21,004 bases of DNA from a virus. Positions 1,271 through 18,103 of this stretch are shown piece by piece; positions within the stretch are counted from its first letter, which is position 1; each line of letters starts with the position of its first letter. The notes under the pieces are model-generated. The model was not told the DNA's origin. It saw only the letters and a program-made list of their open reading frames with translations, and made no database searches. The DNA is taken from the IMG/VR virus record IMGVR_UViG_3300037882_000480, positions 1-21,004 of that record. One strand, 5' to 3'. Both the position numbers and the translations under genes were made by a program.

Positions 1271-2392
1271 TTACATCGCTACTACATAGAAGCTCATTCG
1301 GTTGCTGTCATAATTTGCGCCGTTACCTTGGTTTCTATTGTATATGTTAAATGTTGTTGTTGTTTTATCAAAAATAATAGGGCTGCCTGAGTTTGTAACC
1401 CCACCAGTGTCACCATTCATAACGTAAATATGGTAATACGCGTCAGCTTGGGCTGATGCAAGAGTCACCGCATAAACACCTGTAGCCGCTTTATTAACAC
1501 TAGTAATTCCTTTTGAAGTAACCAAAGTCTTATTGCCTGTCGCGCCAGTTCCGTCAAAAGTGGCTTGAGCATCTACTAGAGATAGGAAAGTTGCGCTAGG
1601 AACTGCCGCATCAACATAAGCCTTTGTTGCAGCATCTTGTGCGCTTGAAGGGTCTGCCATGTTCACAATCTTTCCAGTTGTGTTCATGGATATGTTGCCG
1701 TAAGCAGTTGAGTTAGCAGTGTTACCAACGCCAAAAGCCATAGAGTCTGTACCGTTGGCTGATTCAATAGTCATGCCAGCAGATGTTTTAGCAGCTATTA
1801 AGTCAGAAATAACATTCCAAACTGTGCCGCCTGCGCTAACTGTAACATCACCCTTATCACCATCACTAACTGGTGGACCAGCAGGTCCTTGTGGACCTTG
1901 TGGACCTACTAAACTATCCACATTCTCTAACGCATCACCAGCAGAATTCCAAGCTAGGAAAGCATTAGCCTCTGGCTCTGGTAGAATAATACCGCTTGTC
2001 GGGCTGGCAATGGCAAATTTAATTGACCTATCAATAGCATCTTGTTGCTCTTGTACCACAGCAGTTAGCTTATCAAAGCTATTCTCGTTTGTTTTGCCCT
2101 GAAATCCTGATGATGTGGTGTAATTCACGTCTTGGTCTTGCTCAGTTTCACGATAACGAATTACGTTGTAAAGCGCACTAGGAGCAACCGCCATAGTCGC
2201 AACATAACCAGAAGCTGTAAATGTTAGGGTGTAATCTGAGCCTTGAGTCTGCGTTGTGCGAACGCCTGTGCTGATAAGCTCTAAATCCAGCTTAAAAGCA
2301 GCCGCAGTTAATGGCGACCAGTTACCAGTGAAAACAGTTGTTACTCCATTCCCTTGTGTAGATTGCGGCAGGTAATTGTCAGCGACTGTCAT
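1271..2392 (-). CDS. Tail fibre protein with T7 gp17-like N-terminus and collagen-like linker
   Basis: This 373-aa protein starts at ATG 2392 with a GGAG SD 8 nt upstream. Residues 1-125 resemble the virion-anchoring N-terminal domain of T7-type fibres. A beta-rich part is followed by the phrase GKTNENSFDKLTAVVQEQQ and an amphipathic helix leading to IDRSIKF. Residues 163-174 form a short collagen-like run (GPQ-GPQ-GPA-GPP). Around residues 243-260 the phrase VNMADPSSAQDAATKAYV is common in fibres before the distal domain. The C-terminal 110 residues are beta-rich and rich in Asn and Gly, probably the receptor-binding tip. At 373 aa it is shorter than T7 gp17 (553 aa). The following LamG-like protein may share receptor binding. 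The fibre is probably a trimer at the tail collar, by analogy with T7. Confidence 0.85.
   Translation of the reverse strand: MTVADNYLPQSTQGNGVTTVFTGNWSPLTAAAFKLDLELISTGVRTTQTQGSDYTLTFTASGYVATMAVAPSALYNVIRYRETEQDQDVNYTTSSGFQGKTNENSFDKLTAVVQEQQDAIDRSIKFAIASPTSGIILPEPEANAFLAWNSAGDALENVDSLVGPQGPQGPAGPPVSDGDKGDVTVSAGGTVWNVISDLIAAKTSAGMTIESANGTDSMAFGVGNTANSTAYGNISMNTTGKIVNMADPSSAQDAATKAYVDAAVPSATFLSLVDAQATFDGTGATGNKTLVTSKGITSVNKAATGVYAVTLASAQADAYYHIYVMNGDTGGVTNSGSPIIFDKTTTTFNIYNRNQGNGANYDSNRMSFYVVAM
1871..1906 (-). repeat. Collagen-like G-X-Y repeat coding for residues 163-174 of the fibre
   Basis: Four G-X-Y triplets (GPQ, GPQ, GPA, GPP) are encoded by near-repeated nine-base units. They link the anchoring domain to the distal part of the fibre. 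Short collagen-like runs are common flexible trimeric linkers in phage fibres and are prone to length change by slippage. Confidence 0.8.
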
Positions 2393-2444: not shown

Positions 2445-4967
2445 TCAAGGTTTAATAAAGAATTCTTGTTGGTTTTCCTTCGCCATTCTAGTTTCCATTC
2501 TTTTTAGGTATCCTGGATTCAAATCTTCTTGCAAGCCGTATATAAAAAGCCTATTCAACGGCTCTCTTACATAAAATAAATTAGCAAATGGCGTGTTTGA
2601 TAATGTTGTATTGAGTAAACTTGCGCTGAAATCCTCGCCAGTTCTAGCTTTCGCAAATGTTTCTGCAACGTCAGCCAATGCGCCGAACGTTGGTCCAGCA
2701 GCAGTATCAAATAAACTTCTGCCATAGCGGTTATATTCGCCAAATACAAAGTCGCCCATGATACCTAGCCCGCCTCCTTGCAGCATAGCAGATAGCCATG
2801 TTTTAGGCGCAAATGGGTCTCTTGGGTTTTTGCCCTTTACTAAATCCTTTGCCGTCATTGATGCGTAACCCATTATGGTTGTGGCAGTTACTATGGCAAG
2901 CATAGCTAATTTATCTGCCTTACCTTTAGCGTAAAGCTCACGCCCCCATACTTTGGAGAGGAAGGTAATAGGAAAGCTCTTAAATTGCATAATAAATCTA
3001 ACTGCCTCGCCCTCTATAGTGCCCCTCTTTAAGCCTTGATTCAGAATAGAGTTTTCCCTTGCGCCAGGCTCTAATATGGCGTGGTCAATTCTATCTTGGA
3101 AATAAACATTAAATCGGCTGCGAGCATCAGCCTTGAATGCCGCAATATCCTTAACGCTGGAGGGCTTGCCGTTTTCTATCAGGATATTGGCTAGAATATT
3201 ATCATCAAGCGTATCTATCAAATCAGCAGTTAAATGCTTCCTGCCTTTATCTACATAAGGGTCAGCAGCCCTTAATGCGTCCCAATGCGTTTGCTCAATG
3301 CCATAATAGTTGAAAATCTGTTTTGTAATGCTGTTTAACTTATCAAAACTAACGCCTCTAAGCTGCGCTAATCTGCCAGACATAATTGCACCAATGCCGA
3401 TTTTACCCACATCAGTCCACCATGTTAAACCATTATACTTAAAGAAAGTTGTCATTAATGCGTTCATGTGTCCAGGCAAACTGTCGTTAGCGGTAAATTT
3501 AGTCACAACCGCACCTCTAAAAGCATCTAACCCCTGCCCTTGCAAATAACCAACTTTCCTTCTAAATTTGTCCCCACGCCCTTTGAGTCGCTCATTAAAT
3601 ACTTTAGCTTGTGCGGTAAAATGATTATCGCCTTGAAAACTTATTTCTGCTGCCGCAACTGGTATATCAGAAAAGCTAGATAACAACGCACCACCTAACT
3701 TTGCCATGCTTTGCACCGCACGAAATATACTAGAATTACGTGCAAAATTAGGATTTTCAGCAATCATCACCTCGCCGCTTACGTTAGCATAGAAATTATT
3801 AATTCTGCGCTCTGTGGAAGATAATTTGCTAGTATTAAAAGTCGTTCTATATTTTGCTTTTGAATCTTCAAGCAACTTAGCTAACATTGCTTTTGGGTTT
3901 GTGCCTAGCGTTTCCAGCAAAGCAATATCTCTTGCGCCTTTATCAAACCCACGCAATAATGCTTCTGCCAACCCGTCTTTGCCAGTCCCGAATATATCAT
4001 TATAATCATGCCATGAGTCAGCATCTTTGAAATGCAATACACGTTTTTGGCTAATTTTCTTAGCAAGGTTTGCTGGTCCTTTGAAAGCGAATAACTTTTC
4101 ATCACCTTCTACTGATTTCAAATGAATACCAGTTACAAAAGAATCATACGTTTTGCGCAAAAAATCCTCTTTACTCTCAACGTCTTTGAATGTTCTATTT
4201 TCATCTAGCTTAGGTAAGATAAAATCCCGCCAAGCCTCATAATTACTTTTATCACGTGCGGGTTTATCTAGTGGGTTTAATCGTTGCCCAAGCGTTCTTT
4301 GCTGAACATAATAAGCTGCATTCTGTATTTTATATTGGTCGTGGCTAGTACCCGCTATATAATCCGCTAAATCACCAATATCTGCACCAGCTTTATTAAG
4401 CCTAATTTTCATGTAATCTTGCGTATCCTTCAAAATTTTAGCAATTTGCTTTACTTCGTTGGTACTGCCTTTAATTTCAACGCCTTCGTTCAACGCTTGC
4501 ATTTCTCTAGCTATCTGGCGGCTATTTGTTGAGTCTCTCCATATATCTAGCAATCCCGCTTCTTCCATTTTGGAAATAGTCGTTCCTAACAATTCTGATT
4601 GCAGGGTTGATTTTGCTTTTTTATCTATAGAGAATAAACCATTTTTAATATTAGCTTCCACACCTACAAGAATTGCTTGAAAAGATTTCTCAACAGTTAG
4701 CCCATTAACTACCATGTCATCTATTTGGTTTGTTAATTGAGCATATTTAACAGCATTAATCTTAGCATTACGGGCTTCAATTAAGGCTTCATGTTTTATC
4801 GCCGTTTGGATTTCTGCCGCTTTTGCCATAATATAATCGTCAGCAGAAAACCCTTTGGCAATAGCCTTATCTTTGCCTTGCTCAAGCAATTCAAATATCT
4901 CTTTGGCTTGCTGTGCGTTCAAAGCCCCTTTAGATTGCTCAACTAATCTTTTTATACAATCTCTCAT
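2445..4967 (-). CDS. Internal virion (ejection) protein, C-terminal part of a T7 gp16/DarB-like protein
   Basis: The 840-aa product starts with ATG at 4967-4965, immediately after the TAA of the upstream gene and in the same frame. An AGAGGA SD lies just before that stop, only 3 nt from the ATG. The protein is mostly alpha-helical and charged, with coiled-coil-like stretches in the first 180 residues. Near residues 634-673 it carries the pattern EPGARENS ... RFIMQFKSFPITFL, which resembles the QFKSFP motif seen in large phage internal proteins of the gp16/DarB group. A hydrophobic segment lies at about residues 686-703, and glycine-rich hydrophobic stretches at 730-765. The family role is to be ejected from the virion and help form a conduit through the envelope during infection. 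I see no lysozyme or transglycosylase active-site pattern. Together with the 563-aa protein before it, the length is close to that of T7 gp16 (1318 aa). Confidence 0.8.
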   Translation of the reverse strand: MRDCIKRLVEQSKGALNAQQAKEIFELLEQGKDKAIAKGFSADDYIMAKAAEIQTAIKHEALIEARNAKINAVKYAQLTNQIDDMVVNGLTVEKSFQAILVGVEANIKNGLFSIDKKAKSTLQSELLGTTISKMEEAGLLDIWRDSTNSRQIAREMQALNEGVEIKGSTNEVKQIAKILKDTQDYMKIRLNKAGADIGDLADYIAGTSHDQYKIQNAAYYVQQRTLGQRLNPLDKPARDKSNYEAWRDFILPKLDENRTFKDVESKEDFLRKTYDSFVTGIHLKSVEGDEKLFAFKGPANLAKKISQKRVLHFKDADSWHDYNDIFGTGKDGLAEALLRGFDKGARDIALLETLGTNPKAMLAKLLEDSKAKYRTTFNTSKLSSTERRINNFYANVSGEVMIAENPNFARNSSIFRAVQSMAKLGGALLSSFSDIPVAAAEISFQGDNHFTAQAKVFNERLKGRGDKFRRKVGYLQGQGLDAFRGAVVTKFTANDSLPGHMNALMTTFFKYNGLTWWTDVGKIGIGAIMSGRLAQLRGVSFDKLNSITKQIFNYYGIEQTHWDALRAADPYVDKGRKHLTADLIDTLDDNILANILIENGKPSSVKDIAAFKADARSRFNVYFQDRIDHAILEPGARENSILNQGLKRGTIEGEAVRFIMQFKSFPITFLSKVWGRELYAKGKADKLAMLAIVTATTIMGYASMTAKDLVKGKNPRDPFAPKTWLSAMLQGGGLGIMGDFVFGEYNRYGRSLFDTAAGPTFGALADVAETFAKARTGEDFSASLLNTTLSNTPFANLFYVREPLNRLFIYGLQEDLNPGYLKRMETRMAKENQQEFFIKP

Positions 4968-6659
4968 TTATCCTCTCGTTAGGCAAAAAGCCGCTTTTTT
5001 AATAGAATCAACGTAACTGTCAGCGTCGTTAATACCCTGCTCAAATTTCGTCAACACACTATCTAATTCATCATCAATAAAACCCGCCGCACGTAACGCT
5101 TCAATATCAAAACCAACCTCGTCAATCTCACGTTGCAAAGCATCATCGTCTAATTCATCACGATATTGGTTATTATAATCATCTACAGTCTTTATTGCCG
5201 CCGCATCATAAGTGCTTGAATGTTTTGGGTTATTTAATGATTCATCTATAGCCCTTATTTTTTCTGGCAAGTTGGCTTGCTTTTCTGCAATAACTGGTTT
5301 ACGAACCATTTTATCACCTTTTTTCACAAAACCAAATTTCTCATAAAATTTTACTAATCGTGGCATATCTGCGCCATAAGCAGTAGTTGGCGCAACTTCC
5401 ATAGTTTGTTTTGCATTATCGGCATAAGAAACTAGCTCACGCATTGCCGCCGAACCAATGCCTTTATTAGTTTCGCCCTTTGGAGCAGAAAACGCAGAAA
5501 CGTATATATCATTTTCTCTTTGCACTAATTGCGCTTGAGTGCCGTATTTTCTATTTACTACTTCTGTAAATTCTTCTGGCGTCAGAACCTCGTCAATATT
5601 CTTTTTAACCCCAACCGCAGATACATCTACCACTTGCCCTGCCATTATTTGCTGGCTGGCTAATTCTGCCGCTTCCGCATGAGTATTATCGTCTATACGG
5701 CGCATAACAACCGCAGCTTTATCTTTAGCAATAATACCACCTTTTGCTAAATCTTTTGACTCTAAGGCAGTCAAAGCGCTTTCTGAAAACTCCACACCTT
5801 TTTTCTTTAATTTACTTAAGCTGGCTTCTTGCGCTTGCTTGCGTGATAATTTAAGTTGCCTACTTTGTTGAAGGTTTCTAAAAGCCACGCCACCGCCCTC
5901 TATAGCCGCCCCAAATGCAACGGAAGTTACAAGATTCATTAGAGTGTCTGTCATGGTGTAATCATCACCCACTAACTTAGCAGAAGCTCTATTACTAGGC
6001 TCTGTAATACCAACTGCAATAGCACCCTCTGCACCTGCCCTCGTGGCAACCGCAGCAACTTCACCAAATTTTGCTCCAACTTTTGCAGTTAGAAAATTCT
6101 TCATGGATAGAAAGCGAGTTGATGTGTTGCTCAAGCCAACTATAGGCGCACGAATTAACCCACCTGCCACTACACCAGATACTAAATTTTTAGGCTCAAA
6201 TACACCAGCACCCAAGCCCGCAGTAAATGCAGCAACACTTTCTGCTGTGTTGGCTTTTGATAATATCAAGCCATTTTTCAAGCGAGCATCATATCTTTCA
6301 GCTTTTATCCTTGCTTCACCTTGAGTTAAGCCAACTTGAAACGGCAAGCCCTCACGAAAGTATTTAGATTGTTTGTATTCGTCTTCTAATAAGTATTGCT
6401 TGCCTTGCTCAGAAACTCCGAAGAAATCTACCAATGCGCCACTAATACCGCTAGTTTCTTCACCCCTATATGCTTTTATCTGCTCAGCTTTTATATCATT
6501 AACAAATGTCCCTACACCCTTTGAGGCTTCGTCAACAGAGGCTCGCACCGCATCAAAAGTTGATGATTCGGATTCTCTTGCTAAGTTGCTGCGCTCACCA
6601 GCTTGGTTAAACTGCTGCTCTTTTTTACCCATTAAGCCTGATGCGCTATATACTGCCAT
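4968..6659 (-). CDS. Internal virion protein with an embedded GNAT-like domain
   Basis: The 563-aa product starts with an ATG sharing its A with the preceding TAA. Residues 135-260 contain several Gly/Ala-rich hydrophobic stretches (AAFTAGLGAGVF, LVSGVVAGGL, MNLVTSVAFGAAIEGGG), typical of membrane-active ejection proteins. Residues 265-340 are charged and helical. Residues about 370-455 look like a GNAT acetyltransferase fold: a strand (IYVSAF), a glycine loop (KGIGSAAMREL), and the classical ending RLVKFYEKFGFVKKGD. The last 100 residues are very acidic. The stop is TAA, followed directly and in frame by the ATG of the 840-aa gene. T7 gp16 carries a transglycosylase in its N-terminal part, and nothing like that is visible here. 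It most likely acts inside the virion or is ejected into the host. The assignment to the gp16/DarB-like group rests on context and composition. Confidence 0.75.
   Translation of the reverse strand: MAVYSASGLMGKKEQQFNQAGERSNLARESESSTFDAVRASVDEASKGVGTFVNDIKAEQIKAYRGEETSGISGALVDFFGVSEQGKQYLLEDEYKQSKYFREGLPFQVGLTQGEARIKAERYDARLKNGLILSKANTAESVAAFTAGLGAGVFEPKNLVSGVVAGGLIRAPIVGLSNTSTRFLSMKNFLTAKVGAKFGEVAAVATRAGAEGAIAVGITEPSNRASAKLVGDDYTMTDTLMNLVTSVAFGAAIEGGGVAFRNLQQSRQLKLSRKQAQEASLSKLKKKGVEFSESALTALESKDLAKGGIIAKDKAAVVMRRIDDNTHAEAAELASQQIMAGQVVDVSAVGVKKNIDEVLTPEEFTEVVNRKYGTQAQLVQRENDIYVSAFSAPKGETNKGIGSAAMRELVSYADNAKQTMEVAPTTAYGADMPRLVKFYEKFGFVKKGDKMVRKPVIAEKQANLPEKIRAIDESLNNPKHSSTYDAAAIKTVDDYNNQYRDELDDDALQREIDEVGFDIEALRAAGFIDDELDSVLTKFEQGINDADSYVDSIKKAAFCLTRG
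5295..5552 (-). other. GNAT acetyltransferase-like domain inside the internal virion protein
   Basis: This segment encodes residues about 370-455 of the 563-aa protein. The acetyl-CoA pyrophosphate loop of GNATs has the form R/Q-x-x-G-x-G/A. Here it reads NKGIGSAAM, with Lys in place of the usual first Arg/Gln. The C-terminal phrase FYEKFGF matches the common GNAT motif B ending (YEKxGF). The first strands of a full fold may be contributed by residues 340-390 and are less clear. Activity cannot be judged from sequence. Confidence 0.65.
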
Positions 6660-8443
6660 TATTCTAGCTCGCTTTGGTATCTATTAAAAAGCCCTACTCC
6701 AATAGCCAACTTTGCTTTAGGGTCTCTTTCTAAAGTTTCTTCAATTTGTTTCTTTTCCAAGTCAGCAATAGGCGTTGAGATAATCTTTCCTTTCTTGTCA
6801 AGAACGTATAGCCCTTTATTATCTACCAACATAAGATTTTTGCCGTCTCTTGCATTAACCCAGCCACCGCCTACTTTAATTGCGTTCAAATATGCCTCTG
6901 GCGTGTAACCAGTTTCCGTAGTAATGTCATCGGTGTATATATCTGATAGCTTAATAGAGTCTATTTTATCTTCCAGCACGTCTTTAGCAGTCGCTTCAAA
7001 GAAATCATCTTCCGCTAGTGTAGCTGGAAGCATGAATTTGTGGTTTCCTATTTGCGTAATCGCAGAACCCTCTGTAAGCCAACCAGTTGCTTTATTCGTA
7101 GCTTGCTCAACATCGTAACCTTGTGTTATGTAATAAGCCGCTAAGTCTTGTACTTTCTGCCCAATAAACGCAGTATCCGCAGGGTCATTCTTGCCGCTAA
7201 TGTTTACTTCTAACCAACCTTTAGTTTTCTCTAAAGCGGCAGTCGTTACATCAGATATTTTTATACCTTCGCCCTTTGCAGTCAATATATCTTGCGCTAG
7301 CTTTTGCGGCTCAACTGGCTTACCTTGTGCATCTCTAAGTTTCCCCATGTCAAAGAACGATTGCACAGTTGCTTGGTCTGCGTCTTCTGTATTCATTAAC
7401 GTCATGGTAATTCTAGCGTTATTGTTAAGCCCATTCTTACTCAAATCATTCAAAGCATTTTGAGAGTAGTATCCGTAAGTTTGGTTTATATTCTGTAAAG
7501 CAGTTTCAAGTTCCGCAGGGTCTTTTATTTGGTTAATTTTAGTTGCCAGCAATTCAGCCTCTTTATTTGGAATAACTGAAGCATTTTCCTCGCTACCTTG
7601 CGCTTCTACAATTTGGTCTAAATCTAATCCTTGCTTTGCATAAAAGTTGGCAGGGTCTTCAATCTGCATTTTCAGCATTTTTAAGCCGTTAGTAACCGCC
7701 GCTCTTTCGCTTCTTTTAATCCCCCTATCAATAGTTTTGCTTAATTTTAGTCTATCTTCAACATTGATAGATGCGTCAAACTTCCCACTATCCAGCAAAC
7801 TCTTGGCTCTATACGGATTTTCACTAGCAACCGCACCCACAAACGCACTAGCCATTTCTGAGTCGTATGCGCCTAATATTTTGTTAGCTGTTACCTCACC
7901 AACTGCGCCGCTTGTTTTTGCAAACTCAACTAACTGCTGCCGTGAAGCCTCAAAATCTAAGATAGCATCTAAATCACCTTCGCCAGTTTTGCCATAATTA
8001 ACGCCATGTTGCATCATGAGCTGCTTGTTATTCTGCCCCATTGTGTCAATGCTAGTCAGCGTATTAATCTCAGCTTGCTTGTATCCCCAATTCTGCATCT
8101 GCAAATCAGAATTACCCTCAAGTGTTGCAGCTTGCGTGGAAAAATCATTTGCCCATAACGAGCCAATATCGCTGTTATACTTACCTAAAACCGCTTTGCG
8201 CTGTGATTTATACGCATCAATGGCTTTCTTATCAAATGGGTTAGCTTCATTCTTAATACGAAAATCAGTATCCAGCTTGGCAATTTCTAACTGAGCCGCA
8301 GATAAACCCTCAGCAACCTTTGCTTTCTGGCTCATGTCTACAATTTTTTGCCCCATTTCGCCAGCAGCAATTAGCTCCTGCCCTGCAAGTTTGCCTTGAA
8401 CCTGAGTTACATCACGAAAGTTTGATAAATCTCTGTTAGCCAT
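6659..8443 (-). CDS. Internal virion protein, T7 gp15-like
   Basis: The 594-aa protein starts with ATG at 8443-8441, directly after the TAA of the preceding gene, with a weak SD (GGGG) inside that gene's last codons. It is long, charged, mainly alpha-helical and soluble. It begins MANRDLSNFRDVTQVQGKLA, followed by helical segments rich in Gln, Ala and Lys, and shows no membrane segment or enzyme motif. Size (T7 gp15 is 747 aa), composition and position between a gp14-like and a gp16-like gene support an ejection-channel protein that forms part of the inner core and leaves the particle with the DNA. The stop TAA shares one base with the ATG of the next gene, so the ejection proteins are probably made by coupled translation in related amounts. 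Confidence 0.7.
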   Translation of the reverse strand: MANRDLSNFRDVTQVQGKLAGQELIAAGEMGQKIVDMSQKAKVAEGLSAAQLEIAKLDTDFRIKNEANPFDKKAIDAYKSQRKAVLGKYNSDIGSLWANDFSTQAATLEGNSDLQMQNWGYKQAEINTLTSIDTMGQNNKQLMMQHGVNYGKTGEGDLDAILDFEASRQQLVEFAKTSGAVGEVTANKILGAYDSEMASAFVGAVASENPYRAKSLLDSGKFDASINVEDRLKLSKTIDRGIKRSERAAVTNGLKMLKMQIEDPANFYAKQGLDLDQIVEAQGSEENASVIPNKEAELLATKINQIKDPAELETALQNINQTYGYYSQNALNDLSKNGLNNNARITMTLMNTEDADQATVQSFFDMGKLRDAQGKPVEPQKLAQDILTAKGEGIKISDVTTAALEKTKGWLEVNISGKNDPADTAFIGQKVQDLAAYYITQGYDVEQATNKATGWLTEGSAITQIGNHKFMLPATLAEDDFFEATAKDVLEDKIDSIKLSDIYTDDITTETGYTPEAYLNAIKVGGGWVNARDGKNLMLVDNKGLYVLDKKGKIISTPIADLEKKQIEETLERDPKAKLAIGVGLFNRYQSELE

Positions 8444-8869
8444 TTAGAACCCCAATGGTTGATATGGACCAGTAGGGCTTGAACTAAACCCACTTCCCAA
8501 TGTTTGCCCAAAAGAATTTGCTGAGAACCCTGCGCCTTGTGAAGCGCCAAATCCACCCATTGCAGCCATACCCACGCTACTTGCAATGCCGCTTACTGCG
8601 CTGTTAAATGCGCTGCTCATGACATTCCTTGAACGTGTATTTGCATTTTTAATAATCTGCTCAGTATCTGCAATACCCACGTTAAACGTATCGCTAATTG
8701 CTGCGCTTGGTGTGCCTTCTAATTCTAAACCAGATTGTAGGAATGAGCTTTTTATCCTTGCAGCTTTAATGCGAGTTTCTCGTGCTTTATTCGCAGCGTT
8801 AAGCGCACCCTCTTGAGTGATAGCCTTAGCTTCCGCTTTGGCTTGCTTTGCTTGTCCTATAGCTGACAA
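8444..8869 (-). CDS. Small internal virion protein, T7 gp14-like, start uncertain
   Basis: The 141-aa form given here starts at TTG 8869-8867 because the frame has no ATG or GTG near its 5' end. The protein begins with an Ala/Lys/Gln-rich helix (QAKQAKAEAKAITQEGALNA), followed by a helical core and a Gly/Ser/Phe-rich C-terminal tail (residues 100-141). This matches the usual build of the small ejection protein at this position. The frame stays open upstream to 8929. The extra codons encode a hydrophobic stretch, NFFTALFIGFQLLSAIG, of the kind often found at the N-terminus of gp14-like proteins. A strong SD, GGAGG, lies at 8912-8908, before those codons. The true protein may therefore be 10-14 residues longer and start at a non-standard codon. 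It overlaps no other gene. Confidence 0.7.
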   Translation of the reverse strand: MSAIGQAKQAKAEAKAITQEGALNAANKARETRIKAARIKSSFLQSGLELEGTPSAAISDTFNVGIADTEQIIKNANTRSRNVMSSAFNSAVSGIASSVGMAAMGGFGASQGAGFSANSFGQTLGSGFSSSPTGPYQPLGF

Positions 8870-8913: not shown

Positions 8914-11187
8914 TTATCCTGTTGTTACGCTATGGTTAGCTTCTATAATAACACTTGTTACAAAGAATGGCAAAGGCAAATCTTGCACCAAGTAAAACTG
9001 TTTATCAATCTCGTGTTTATCTAAAAATGGCAGCGTTTCTGTGCCGTCTAATGGCAATGCTGGCAGATAGTTTATGTCGCCTTGCTGCAATTTTTGTATA
9101 TCTTTCAGCGCATAGAAATCAGTACCGAACTTCCCGCCCAAACTTGTTGTAGTGCGGATAGATAATCTATTCAACGCTTTGAATGTAGCTTGAGTATTGT
9201 ACTGCTGGATAACAAAGCCAAGCACAAAGCTTTTTACAATGCCAGTATATCCATAGCCCACAACCGCATGAGTTACTTGCCTATCTAGCGCAATAGCTCC
9301 GCCACTCACAACTGCAGTACCATAATAACCGCCGTCAGCAACAACGCTCAAAGTCTGTCCATTATATGCACTTGCAAGCCCTGATATGGTTGAGAATGTC
9401 AAATACCAATTAGTATAAGTATTCACAGTCGGAGTTTGTAGAACTGTAACAGTTACCACAGTTCCACTTGTATATCCTGTAATTTCAAACCGCCCTGACT
9501 CATAACCAGTTAGTGTTTTATAAACAATATGCTTGCCAATATCGCCCGCTGAAAACACGCTTGATGTGGCTGTTATGGTATTCGTACCATTGAATGTGAT
9601 TGAGTTGCTTTTCAAATTGCTGATAATCTGAGCGTTATCAAGGTAAATACACTCTTTTAGCTGTTCAGCTCTCATGCGGTAATATGCAGCTTTATCTGCC
9701 GCTTTCGTTGTGGATAGGTATTCTTCGGGTTTAACAAACTCAACAGTTTGTGCCTCACGCTCAATGTAATATACTCCATTTCGTAGCGATAAAACAAATA
9801 TTTGCGGGTTGCCGTCATTGTCAGTTATTTGTGCAATATCTTCAAAGCTGCCGCTAGTTGTGTGATTATGCCAGCCAGCAATATTCTCATCAGCATTAAA
9901 GTTGAGGGTTTGGATTGAGCCATTGCCATTGAGAGAATAGATAAAATCCTCCTTATCCCGCTTGTATCTTAATTTCTCAAGCCCGCCCTTTGTTATCTCA
10001 TATGCAAGTAGGTTAGCATCTTTGGCTTTAAACGTTTCAGTCAATAAGTCATAAGAGAAATACAACATACGCCGCTTAATAATATCCATATAGAATATCA
10101 ATCCGTCTTTCGTAACTGGGTATACATCGCTCGCAGGATTAGCCGAAGTCAGAATAGTATCAATGCTTTCAGCCGTGATAGATTTACCCACCTCGCCGCC
10201 ATTAATCGCAACAATGCCGTCAGCACTTCCAGCAATTAAGCTATTCTCACCAGCAAATAACCAAAGTATTTCTTGGCTAATATCTGCTAGTGTAAACTGC
10301 AAAGCACTTGTTGCTAACACGCTTGTCGGTATTTTGAACCTATCATACTCACTATCTTCTGAACCCCAGATAGTAGTTATCTTCGTTGCAGATGCGCCGT
10401 AATAGAGCTTAGCGCCATAATAAAGAGCAAGATTAGGATAGGAAGCTGTCGCCACCTTCTCTGCCGTTCCAGCGCTTGTATAGGCTGTAAAATCCCTTGT
10501 GTCTAGACTCACAGTTACATTATTAGCATCAACCACAGAAACCACGCCAACTGTGTAGTCGTTAATCTCAGTCATTCCGCTAACGCCAGTTACCTTGAAA
10601 CTATCGCCAGCCACATATCCATGCGCTGCAATAGTTATCTGAGCTTTTAACGCTTTCGTGATAGCGGTAATTGTTTTGCTAGCATCATACGTTAAATTAA
10701 ATGGATTATCCTTTAAGCTAGTAACTACCAACTCAAAGTTATCTGCTGCCAGCCTGCGTAATGAGCGAGGCGCATAACTCTTATGCGTTATCTGCATAGC
10801 ATCATCATTCTGCGTATATTGCTTTCTGCGGGCTATTTCCTTTATTTGCGCCAGCGTGTAAGGTGTTGCAACTTCAAGAGGTGAACCACCACTTAAAACC
10901 CAGCCAAAGTTACCGCTCCCGTCATAAGATAGAAAACGAAACTTATTCGCATATCCTACCACAATATAATTTTGTGAAACTGAAAACTTAAATTCAATAA
11001 AAGCGCAATCTTGAAATACAAGCATTTGCTCATATGCTGTGCGATAGAACGTATTGCCTTTGAAATTAGTTTTGAAGTTACGCACAATCTCTGCGCTGGT
11101 GTTGTAAATCGGCAAATCAAATCTGCCGTTCATATCTCTATCAACTTGTCCCTTAGCAAAGTTTACATATGAGCTTACTATCTTCAT
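8914..11187 (-). CDS. Tail tubular protein B (T7 gp12-like nozzle protein)
   Basis: The 757-aa protein starts in an ATGA overlap with the stop of tail tubular protein A and has no clear SD of its own, so it is probably translated by coupling. Length is close to T7 gp12 (794 aa). It is beta-rich throughout. The first residues (MKIVSSYVNFAKGQVDRDMNGRFDLPIY) contain the 'F..Gq...d..gR.Dl..Y' pattern usual at the start of gp12-type nozzle proteins, followed by NFKTNFKGNTFYRTAYE. Near residues 110-130 it has RRKQYTQNDDAMQITHKSYAPR, a version of the 'QsaD.m.ithp..aPr.L' phrase typical of the family. The nozzle forms the distal tail tube below gp11 and contacts the fibres. The order gp11-gp12 matches T7. 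Confidence 0.9.
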   Translation of the reverse strand: MKIVSSYVNFAKGQVDRDMNGRFDLPIYNTSAEIVRNFKTNFKGNTFYRTAYEQMLVFQDCAFIEFKFSVSQNYIVVGYANKFRFLSYDGSGNFGWVLSGGSPLEVATPYTLAQIKEIARRKQYTQNDDAMQITHKSYAPRSLRRLAADNFELVVTSLKDNPFNLTYDASKTITAITKALKAQITIAAHGYVAGDSFKVTGVSGMTEINDYTVGVVSVVDANNVTVSLDTRDFTAYTSAGTAEKVATASYPNLALYYGAKLYYGASATKITTIWGSEDSEYDRFKIPTSVLATSALQFTLADISQEILWLFAGENSLIAGSADGIVAINGGEVGKSITAESIDTILTSANPASDVYPVTKDGLIFYMDIIKRRMLYFSYDLLTETFKAKDANLLAYEITKGGLEKLRYKRDKEDFIYSLNGNGSIQTLNFNADENIAGWHNHTTSGSFEDIAQITDNDGNPQIFVLSLRNGVYYIEREAQTVEFVKPEEYLSTTKAADKAAYYRMRAEQLKECIYLDNAQIISNLKSNSITFNGTNTITATSSVFSAGDIGKHIVYKTLTGYESGRFEITGYTSGTVVTVTVLQTPTVNTYTNWYLTFSTISGLASAYNGQTLSVVADGGYYGTAVVSGGAIALDRQVTHAVVGYGYTGIVKSFVLGFVIQQYNTQATFKALNRLSIRTTTSLGGKFGTDFYALKDIQKLQQGDINYLPALPLDGTETLPFLDKHEIDKQFYLVQDLPLPFFVTSVIIEANHSVTTG

Positions 11188-17463: not shown

Positions 17464-17658
17464 TTAATTCCCAAAAGTGGTGGAATTGCGCCCGCCAACT
17501 TGTTGCGGGTTAAGCTCTGAGCCTACAACTCCACCTTCCGTTAGGAACTGGTTACGCTTGCTCTTTTTGGATTTAGCTTCTTCGTCTTTAAGCTCAACTG
17601 GAGCTGTGCTTTTTACTTTTGGGGCTGAGAAGCCTAGTAGTTTGGAAAATTTACCCAT
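17464..17658 (-). CDS. Small basic protein upstream of the portal (64 aa)
   Basis: ATG at 17658 has an excellent SD (AAGGAG, 7 nt) and overlaps the GNAT stop by 8 nt. The protein has an amphipathic start (MGKFSKLLGF), a Lys/Glu-rich middle (KSKKSKRNQ) and ends in GGRNSTTFGN. Short proteins that end in a GR-x-ST-hydrophobic motif are common beside portal genes in T7-like and related phages, and I know no function for them. Structure is probably largely disordered. A role in head assembly is only a guess from position. Confidence 0.7.
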   Translation of the reverse strand: MGKFSKLLGFSAPKVKSTAPVELKDEEAKSKKSKRNQFLTEGGVVGSELNPQQVGGRNSTTFGN

Positions 17659-18103
17659 GGTTGTACTCCTTAATTAAAAAACTGCCCATGTTTTTGTAAC
17701 CAACTCGGCTAAATAATCTGGTGAAAGCTCTTTCGTTTATTCCGCCATCATCAAACCCGCCAGTTGAAGAAGCATAACACATTGCAATTTTATGTTCAAG
17801 CAATAAGTTATCCATTCCAAAAGCAAGCTGCAACGCTATTTTACCATTCCTGCACTCAGGTTTAACATAGAATAGGAATATATGCGCCACTTCCTCAATA
17901 GTCCAATATCGCTCATGTGTCCACGCAACAAAGCCTTGTCCCTCTGCAATTAAGCAGAAACACCGCCCATCTGTGAGTATTTCGCATATTTCTTTGGCTT
18001 TTTCCTCGTCCCACGTAAGTTTGCCATAGTTACTTTCAGCAAAGAATTGTTTGCTGCACTCCATAATGAAATCAAAATCTTCTGGTGTAGCTGGTCTAAT
18101 CAT
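17651..18103 (-). CDS. GNAT-family acetyltransferase (150 aa)
   Basis: ATG at 18103 lies in an ATGA overlap with the terminase large subunit. Length is typical of single-domain GNATs. The start MIRPATPEDFDFIMEC is the classical beta1-alpha1 of the family. Residues 40-62 form beta2-beta3. LFYVKPECRNGKIALQL is strand beta4 with the acetyl-CoA loop; the usual R/Q-x-x-G-x-G/A loop is altered to CRNGKIA. Residues 123-145 (RAFTRLFSRVGYKNMG) form the motif B ending 'F...GF'. Substrate is unknown. Small GNATs next to terminase or portal genes occur in several podoviruses, and roles in host or virion protein modification are only proposed. Cotranscription with the packaging genes suggests late expression. 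Confidence 0.85.
   Translation of the reverse strand: MIRPATPEDFDFIMECSKQFFAESNYGKLTWDEEKAKEICEILTDGRCFCLIAEGQGFVAWTHERYWTIEEVAHIFLFYVKPECRNGKIALQLAFGMDNLLLEHKIAMCYASSTGGFDDGGINERAFTRLFSRVGYKNMGSFLIKEYNHG

What the first reader, a model, noticed from the sequence alone, without database searches (positions are those of the whole stretch)
5295..5552. Acetyltransferase-like domain inside an ejected virion protein
Residues 370-455 of the internal virion protein carry a GNAT-like glycine loop (KGIGSAAM) and a FYEKFGF ending. T7 gp16 carries a transglycosylase in its large ejection protein, and here no such motif is visible. If active, the domain could be delivered with the DNA into the host cell at the start of infection, where it might modify host proteins, small molecules or nucleic acids.
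Basis: partly seen in the sequence, partly recalled or inferred. Interest (0 to 1): 0.6.

Follow-up and report, generated by a model that had tools for sequence, protein, structure and literature searches.

The report
Acetyltransferase payload in phage ejection protein
A short-tailed phage carries a small acetyltransferase-fold domain inside a protein that is probably injected with its DNA, in a position where related phages carry toxin-like enzymes instead, so it may be an interchangeable weapon that reaches the host before any phage gene is read.

Summary
Residues about 356-455 of the 563-aa protein at 4968-6659(-) form a compact GNAT domain. Two separate AlphaFold runs match GNATs almost exclusively; the best is the anti-CRISPR acetyltransferase AcrVA5 (Z 12.3, 2.2 A over 90 residues). 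By sequence it is a 27-33% relative of the GNAT family known from giant "polyvalent" phage proteins, where it often sits beside an ADP-ribosyltransferase (ART) domain. Pfam alone scores it below threshold.

The carrier protein is a podovirus ejection protein (PHROG 3003), apparently the middle piece of a split T7-gp16-like protein. The next gene is the gp16 C-terminal-like piece, and nine homologous contigs encode both as one ORF. In 97 scaffold homologues the region after the conserved N-terminus holds two kinds of ART, ddrB-ParB, NUDIX and others. Only this phage has the GNAT there. I read the region as a payload slot for host-modifying enzymes.

Activity and target are unproven. The copy keeps the motif-A glycines and the invariant tyrosine (Y439). 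Alone among 66 relatives it has no Arg/Gln/Lys at the first motif-A position (T397), and it has the shortest beta6-beta7 loop, so decay or a non-enzymatic role remains possible. Verdict: new variant of a known kind.

The parts
4968..6659 (-). 563-aa ejection (internal virion) protein: N-terminal scaffold + GNAT domain + C-terminal tail
   Evidence: ORF; phrog_3003 match at residues 110-342, E=1.5e-8; scaffold profile E=1e-48; same place in the gene order as in Pelagibacter, Pseudomonas and Vibrio podoviruses
5784..6659 (-). Conserved N-terminal scaffold, about residues 1-292, with a hydrophobic Gly/Ala-rich stretch near residues 158-177
   Evidence: 97 homologues in the loci fetched here; hydropathy; homologues match T7-gp16-like phrog_342 at profile positions about 253-490
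5295..5594 (-). GNAT (acetyltransferase-fold) payload domain, about residues 356-455
5451..5483 (-). Motif A loop PKGETNKGIGS (residues 393-403), expected to bind the acetyl-CoA pyrophosphate; first motif residue is T397 where 60 of 66 relatives have Arg
5328..5348 (-). FYEKFGF (residues 438-444); Y439 invariant in 66 of 66, the usual general acid of GNATs
   Evidence: role of the Tyr from general knowledge of GNATs (for example AtaT Y144)
4968..5294 (-). C-terminal tail with the conserved end ...AAxCxxR/K (AAFCLTRG) just before the next gene
   Evidence: alignment A6, near-invariant Cys; tails compared
2445..4967 (-). Next gene: 840-aa virion structural protein, phrog_684, C-terminal T7-gp16-like
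   Evidence: phrog_684 E=6e-174; phrog_342 positions 1007-1215 of 1235, E=1.6e-9; fused to the scaffold in nine homologous contigs
6659..8443 (-). 594-aa protein at the position of the large internal virion protein of related podoviruses
   Evidence: gene order; weak BLAST to the Vibrio and Pseudomonas positional homologues
8444..8869 (-). 141-aa internal virion protein B-like (phrog_418, E=0.0019)
   Evidence: gene order

Best explanation
The protein is a middle, gp16-like ejection protein of an Ab31/epsilon15/pelagiphage-type podovirus. Its N-terminal scaffold helps build the trans-envelope conduit, and its central region is an exchangeable payload slot. In this phage the slot holds a compact RimI-type GNAT domain from the GNAT family of polyvalent phage effectors. 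Shown here: the fold, the family kinship, the scaffold family and the alternative payloads after the same scaffold. Inferred: the protein is packaged in the head, ejected with the DNA, and the GNAT part reaches the cytosol, where acetyl-CoA is available, to acetylate a host protein (a defence or transcription/translation factor) before phage genes are expressed.
For: GNAT fold: AlphaFold pLDDT 85.5; matches are GNATs, AcrVA5 first at Z 12.3, 2.2 A, 90 residues; single-sequence model agrees. Kinship with polyvalent GNATs: about 27-33% identity, 18 invariant columns with five phage relatives, tblastn 2e-7, 312 relatives in viral contigs; giants carry LPD22, the GNAT domain and, in two of four scanned, ART-PolyVal, with LPD3 in a third, matching GNAT family 1 in PMC5512222. 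Ejection scaffold: phrog_3003; homologues match T7-gp16-like phrog_342 at about 253-490 and the next gene matches it at 1007-1215; nine contigs fuse scaffold and phrog_684 in one ORF. Alternative payloads in the same family: ART-PolyVal, ADPrib_exo_Tox, ddrB-ParB, NUDIX. ART and GNAT need NAD+ and acetyl-CoA, which are cytosolic, and in T7 the gp16 residues 411-1118 are placed in the host cytoplasm (PMC8954989).
Against: No virion proteomics, ejection assay or activity for this phage. Pfam scores are below curated cut-offs. T397 replaces the near-invariant Arg, and the beta6-beta7 loop is 6 residues instead of 15. The fusion is seen in one lineage only, on two contigs that are 99% identical with identical gene sequence, so selection could not be measured. 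The N-terminal region of the GNAT giants is not detectably related to this scaffold, so delivery is argued from the scaffold alone.
Confidence: 0.6

Rival explanations
1. The domain keeps the GNAT fold but is no longer an enzyme: it is a decayed or purely structural/cofactor-binding insert in the ejection protein.
For: T397 is the only non-Arg/Gln/Lys residue at motif-A position 1 among 66 relatives, and the window has the shortest beta6-beta7 loop. Compact PanZ-type GNATs are among the structural neighbours.
Against: G400, G402, P424, R434, F438, Y439, F442, G443 and F444 are kept. The first motif-A side chain is not strictly required in GNATs, where backbone amides hold the pyrophosphate (general knowledge). 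The fold is predicted intact.
Confidence: 0.2
2. The acetyltransferase works in the infected cell during assembly (on virion proteins or on itself), not after injection.
For: It is encoded among late structural genes, so it is made late; a second, unrelated GNAT gene lies in the same module at 17651-18103.
Against: Fusion to an ejection scaffold would be unnecessary, and sister payloads are ARTs, whose packaged and injected example is T4 Alt (PMC5512222, PMC9503650). In L123 the ART part matches Alt-like PHROGs.
Confidence: 0.08
3. The domain acts on small molecules or tRNA (as AtaT/TacT toxins or antibiotic acetyltransferases do) rather than on proteins.
For: TacT, AtaT and polyamine acetyltransferases are among the fold matches.
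Against: RimI, Naa50, Ard1 and AcrVA5 protein acetyltransferases score about as well or better; the published view of the polyvalent GNAT family is RimI-like (PMC5512222). Substrate cannot be told from fold.
Confidence: 0.1
4. The GNAT resemblance is a chance motif match.
For: Pfam E-values of 0.003-0.011, below curated cut-offs.
Against: All.
Confidence: 0.01

Closest known systems
GNAT domain family 1 of phage polyvalent proteins (Iyer et al. 2017, PMC5512222)
   Same: Same sequence family (about 27-33% identity, shared LTPSxDFGG...RLxxFYKRFGF pattern), virion-linked, ART domains in the same kind of protein
   Different: There the domain sits in giant proteins (often 2000 aa or more) with LPD22 and often an ART in the same chain; here it is alone in a 563-aa ejection protein with an unrelated N-terminal scaffold, with a changed motif A and a short beta6-beta7 loop
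T7 gp16 / epsilon15-type ejection proteins (phrog_342, phrog_684, phrog_3003)
   Same: Scaffold family and next gene match different parts of the gp16-like family; same gene order; domain swapping (lysozyme) already known in ejection proteins (PMC8954989)
   Different: gp16 appears split into two genes here; the inserted enzyme fold is a GNAT rather than a peptidoglycan hydrolase
AcrVA5 anti-CRISPR acetyltransferase (6iuf; AcrVA5Bsp in PMC10799925)
   Same: Best structural match, the same reduced GNAT of about 95 residues, phage-borne
   Different: No convincing sequence kinship (profile E=0.59); AcrVA5 is a free protein; target unknown here
T4 Alt (injected ADP-ribosyltransferase)
   Same: Model for an enzyme packaged in the head and injected to modify host proteins; Alt-like ARTs occur in the same scaffold family
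   Different: Different chemistry and a free-standing protein

Membership tests
GNAT superfamily | Alpha/beta fold with beta4-alpha3-beta5-alpha4-beta6/7 core | tested here: met
   AlphaFold pLDDT 85.5; GNAT matches, Z up to 12.3; single-sequence model agrees
GNAT superfamily | Motif A R/Q-x-x-G-x-G/A | tested here: inconclusive
   T-N-K-G-I-G: both glycines kept, first Arg/Gln replaced by Thr
GNAT superfamily | Binds acetyl-CoA and transfers acetyl | not testable with these tools
   needs biochemistry
Polyvalent-protein GNAT family 1 | Sequence kinship to GNATs in giant virion-associated phage proteins | tested here: met
   the published accession set itself was not compared
Polyvalent-protein GNAT family 1 | ART domain as neighbour in the same polypeptide (described as typical, not strict) | tested here: inconclusive
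   No ART found in the window protein by Pfam; ART occurs in homologous scaffolds of other phages
Polyvalent proteins (class) | Multidomain (2-15 domains) virion- or transfer-delivered protein | tested here: inconclusive
   scaffold plus one effector domain; delivery not shown
T7 gp16-like ejection proteins | Sequence kinship to the gp16 family | tested here: met
   By transitivity: scaffold homologues match phrog_342 at 3e-9 to 8e-13; next gene 1.6e-9. The window scaffold alone reaches only phrog_3003
T7 gp16-like ejection proteins | Present in virion and ejected into the cell | not testable with these tools
   no proteomics or ejection assay
AcrVA5 | Sequence family of AcrVA5 | tested here: inconclusive
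   profile E=0.59; fold match only
AcrVA5 | Acetylates Cas12a | not testable with these tools
   needs assay

The most novel reading that the evidence does not exclude
Podovirus gp16-type ejection proteins carry a dedicated, exchangeable payload slot through which AcrVA5-like acetyltransferases and ADP-ribosyltransferases are pushed into the cytosol ahead of the genome, so that a host defence or transcription protein is modified before any phage gene is transcribed.
Probability: 0.3. Interest if true: 0.8.

Novelty: new variant of a known kind. Interest (0 to 1): 0.52.

Why it matters
Injected phage enzymes can act before any phage gene is expressed, and few are well studied (T4 Alt, P1 Dar proteins, N4 virion RNA polymerase). 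If podovirus ejection proteins have a variable payload slot, that slot becomes a place to look for injected effectors. It also links giant polyvalent proteins to ordinary split ejection proteins, because scaffold, payload and gp16-C-like part occur both as one ORF and as two genes. The delivery question can be tested in culturable Pseudomonas or Vibrio relatives.

Tried and rejected
Chance motif match: rejected. Kinship between the GNAT and the second GNAT gene at 17651-18103: none detectable. Kinship of the scaffold with the N-terminus of GNAT-bearing giants: none detectable. Selection test using the near-identical contig: uninformative, gene identical. tblastn with the scaffold alone against named phages: no match; the relation appears only through profiles. 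The first two domain searches used a wrong frame and were repeated. Sequence kinship with AcrVA5: weak. The search for a T7-type RNA polymerase in the longer twin contig was void because the control did not ring. The LPD3, PBECR5 and HipA_2 matches were counted per set, not placed on individual proteins; the LPD3 one may lie in an upstream ORF that is not a scaffold protein.

Full report
Observation. The ORF at 4968-6659(-) encodes 563 aa. Residues 370-455 fall on 5295-5552 as stated, with TNKGIGSA at 397-404 and FYEKFGF at 438-444. Pfam finds only sub-threshold GNAT models (E=0.003 to 0.011). NCBIfam gives one weak N-acetyltransferase hit and the PDB sequence search one weak acetyltransferase hit.

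Fold. A single-sequence AlphaFold run on residues 330-470 gave pLDDT 63, and its Foldseek matches were almost all GNATs. With a 66-row alignment of relatives, residues 345-465 reached pLDDT 85.5 and pTM 0.74, with helix 361-372, strands 375-380 and 384-391, helix 401-415, strand 419-422, helix 432-440 and a terminal hairpin 445-453. This is the beta4-alpha3-beta5-alpha4-beta6/7 core of a GNAT with a reduced N-terminal half. Foldseek hits are GNATs. The best VIA-align hit is AcrVA5, 6iuf, Z 12.3, 2.2 A, 90 of 96 residues; the next GNATs score Z 9-10.8. AcrVA5 is itself a reduced GNAT, so this match partly reflects size, and its sequence is not demonstrably related (E=0.59). AcrVA5 and its structural analogue AcrVA5Bsp are reported as active acetyltransferase-type Cas12a inhibitors (PMC10799925), so a domain this small can be an enzyme.

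Sequence family. tblastn of residues 320-475 against named phages finds GNAT stretches inside very large proteins: Skulduggery and Parlo (annotated DarB-like), Klebsiella phage ZX1 (PLxRFG protein), Vibrio phage 1.185.O and Tunturi_5, E 2e-7 to 5e-6. The alignment has 18 invariant columns. IMG/VR holds at least 312 relatives. Many lie in proteins of more than 2000 aa, a number of them on contigs with a tail-tubular-B relative. Four such giants scanned with Pfam carry LPD22; two also carry ART-PolyVal just after the GNAT, and one carries LPD3. That matches the published description of GNAT family 1 in polyvalent proteins, which usually has an ART neighbour and is placed in the RimI-like clade (PMC5512222). 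A leave-one-out profile of 65 relatives scores the window protein 81 bits, against 9.7 for the best of 2000 shuffles.

Integrity. The window keeps G400 and G402 of motif A, P424, G429, R434, L435, F438, Y439, F442, G443 and F444. At the first motif-A position 60 of 66 have Arg; the five other exceptions have Gln or Lys, and the window has Thr. The stretch between F444 and M451 is 6 residues, against 15 in 61 of 66. Activity is therefore plausible but not assured.

Carrier protein. Gene order is terminase, portal, capsid, tail tubular A and B, internal virion protein B, a 594-aa protein, the GNAT protein, then an 840-aa phrog_684 virion protein. A corresponding order is seen in Pelagibacter phage HTVC100P, Pseudomonas phage Flu_PA14_4, Vibrio phage 1.182.O and Salmonella phage SPN1S, although the SPN1S protein at this position was not recognised by the scaffold profile. 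The N-terminus of about 290 aa is the scaffold, phrog_3003. It was recognised in 97 non-redundant proteins from loci fetched through the phrog_684 neighbour. Homologues of the scaffold match the T7-gp16-like phrog_342 at profile positions about 253-490 with E 3e-9 to 8e-13. The phrog_684 neighbour matches phrog_342 at 1007-1215. In nine contigs (L129, L142, L143, L150, L159, L164, L172, L175, L184) scaffold and phrog_684 are one ORF. I infer that the window pair is a split gp16-like ejection protein.

Payload slot. After the scaffold, homologues carry ART-PolyVal (Vibrio phage 1.182.O, residues 310-462, E=3e-17; L093 and L268), ADPrib_exo_Tox ARTs (L123, L131, L154, L204, L205, L207 and others), ddrB-ParB (L163, L129, L150, L159, L164, L172, L267) and NUDIX (L205); single matches to PBECR5 and HipA_2 were counted. 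Pfam counts over two scans were 11 ADPrib_exo_Tox, 6 ART-PolyVal and 7 ddrB-ParB. The exoenzyme-type ARTs lie about 500 residues further on, so 'same slot' is strict only for GNAT, ART-PolyVal and ddrB-ParB. None of the other scaffold proteins fetched carries the GNAT; the fusion is known from the window and its 99%-identical twin contig, whose copy of the gene is identical.

Mechanism. In T7, gp14, gp15 and gp16 leave the head, gp16-N stays in the periplasm and gp16 residues 411-1118 are placed in the host cytoplasm (review PMC8954989). If the scaffold corresponds to gp16 positions near 250-490 (profile positions, only roughly T7 numbering), what follows it would be on the cytoplasmic side. 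That NAD- and acetyl-CoA-dependent domains occupy this position points the same way, since these cofactors are cytosolic. The most likely action is acetylation of a host protein at the start of infection; the target is unknown. Shown: fold, family, scaffold and payload variation. Inferred: packaging, ejection, side of the membrane, activity and target.

Literature. PMC5512222 proposes that polyvalent proteins are injected and contain GNATs and ARTs. Its main text does not contain the terms 'ejection' or 'internal virion'. The ejection-protein review mentions swapping of functional domains (lysozyme) but no acetyltransferase or ADP-ribosyl domain. Two searches for papers joining these terms returned none. 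The library is limited to open-licence papers, so earlier notice elsewhere is possible.

Verdict. It is a new variant of a known kind: a polyvalent-type GNAT on a different, gp16-like ejection scaffold with exchangeable payloads.

Noticed in passing
window 17651-18103 (-): A second, free-standing GNAT gene (phrog_1249, E=5e-16) lies between terminase and portal and is unrelated by profile to the ejection-protein GNAT; Pelagibacter phage HTVC100P and Vibrio phage 1.182.O have an annotated acetyltransferase between tail tubular B and the next internal virion protein.
   Followed up: partly
L129:1246-8532, L159:949-8361, L172:256-8367 and six others: Scaffold, payload and phrog_684 are one ORF of about 1460-2800 aa, in some with ddrB-ParB and endolysin-like parts: a bridge between giant polyvalent proteins and split ejection proteins.
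   Followed up: partly
L123:2513-5986, L131:2186-5803, L154:2411-5806, L207:2473-5976: Ejection-protein homologues of about 1130-1210 aa with exoenzyme/Alt-like ADP-ribosyltransferase domains (Pfam E down to 7e-27).
   Followed up: partly
L205:2420-5977: One scaffold homologue carries both a NUDIX domain (447-557) and an ART (879-1045).
   Followed up: no
window 1271-2392 and 8914-11187 (-): The near-identical twin contig (IMGVR_UViG_3300020044_004166) differs mostly in the fibre and tail tubular B genes (97.5-97.9% identity, with gaps), while the phrog_684, GNAT-protein, protein B and tubular A genes are identical.
   Followed up: partly
L192:4261-6897 (Rickettsia endosymbiont of Culicoides impunctatus chromosome): A scaffold + phrog_684 ejection module lies in a Rickettsia endosymbiont genome, an unusual host for a podovirus remnant.
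   Followed up: no
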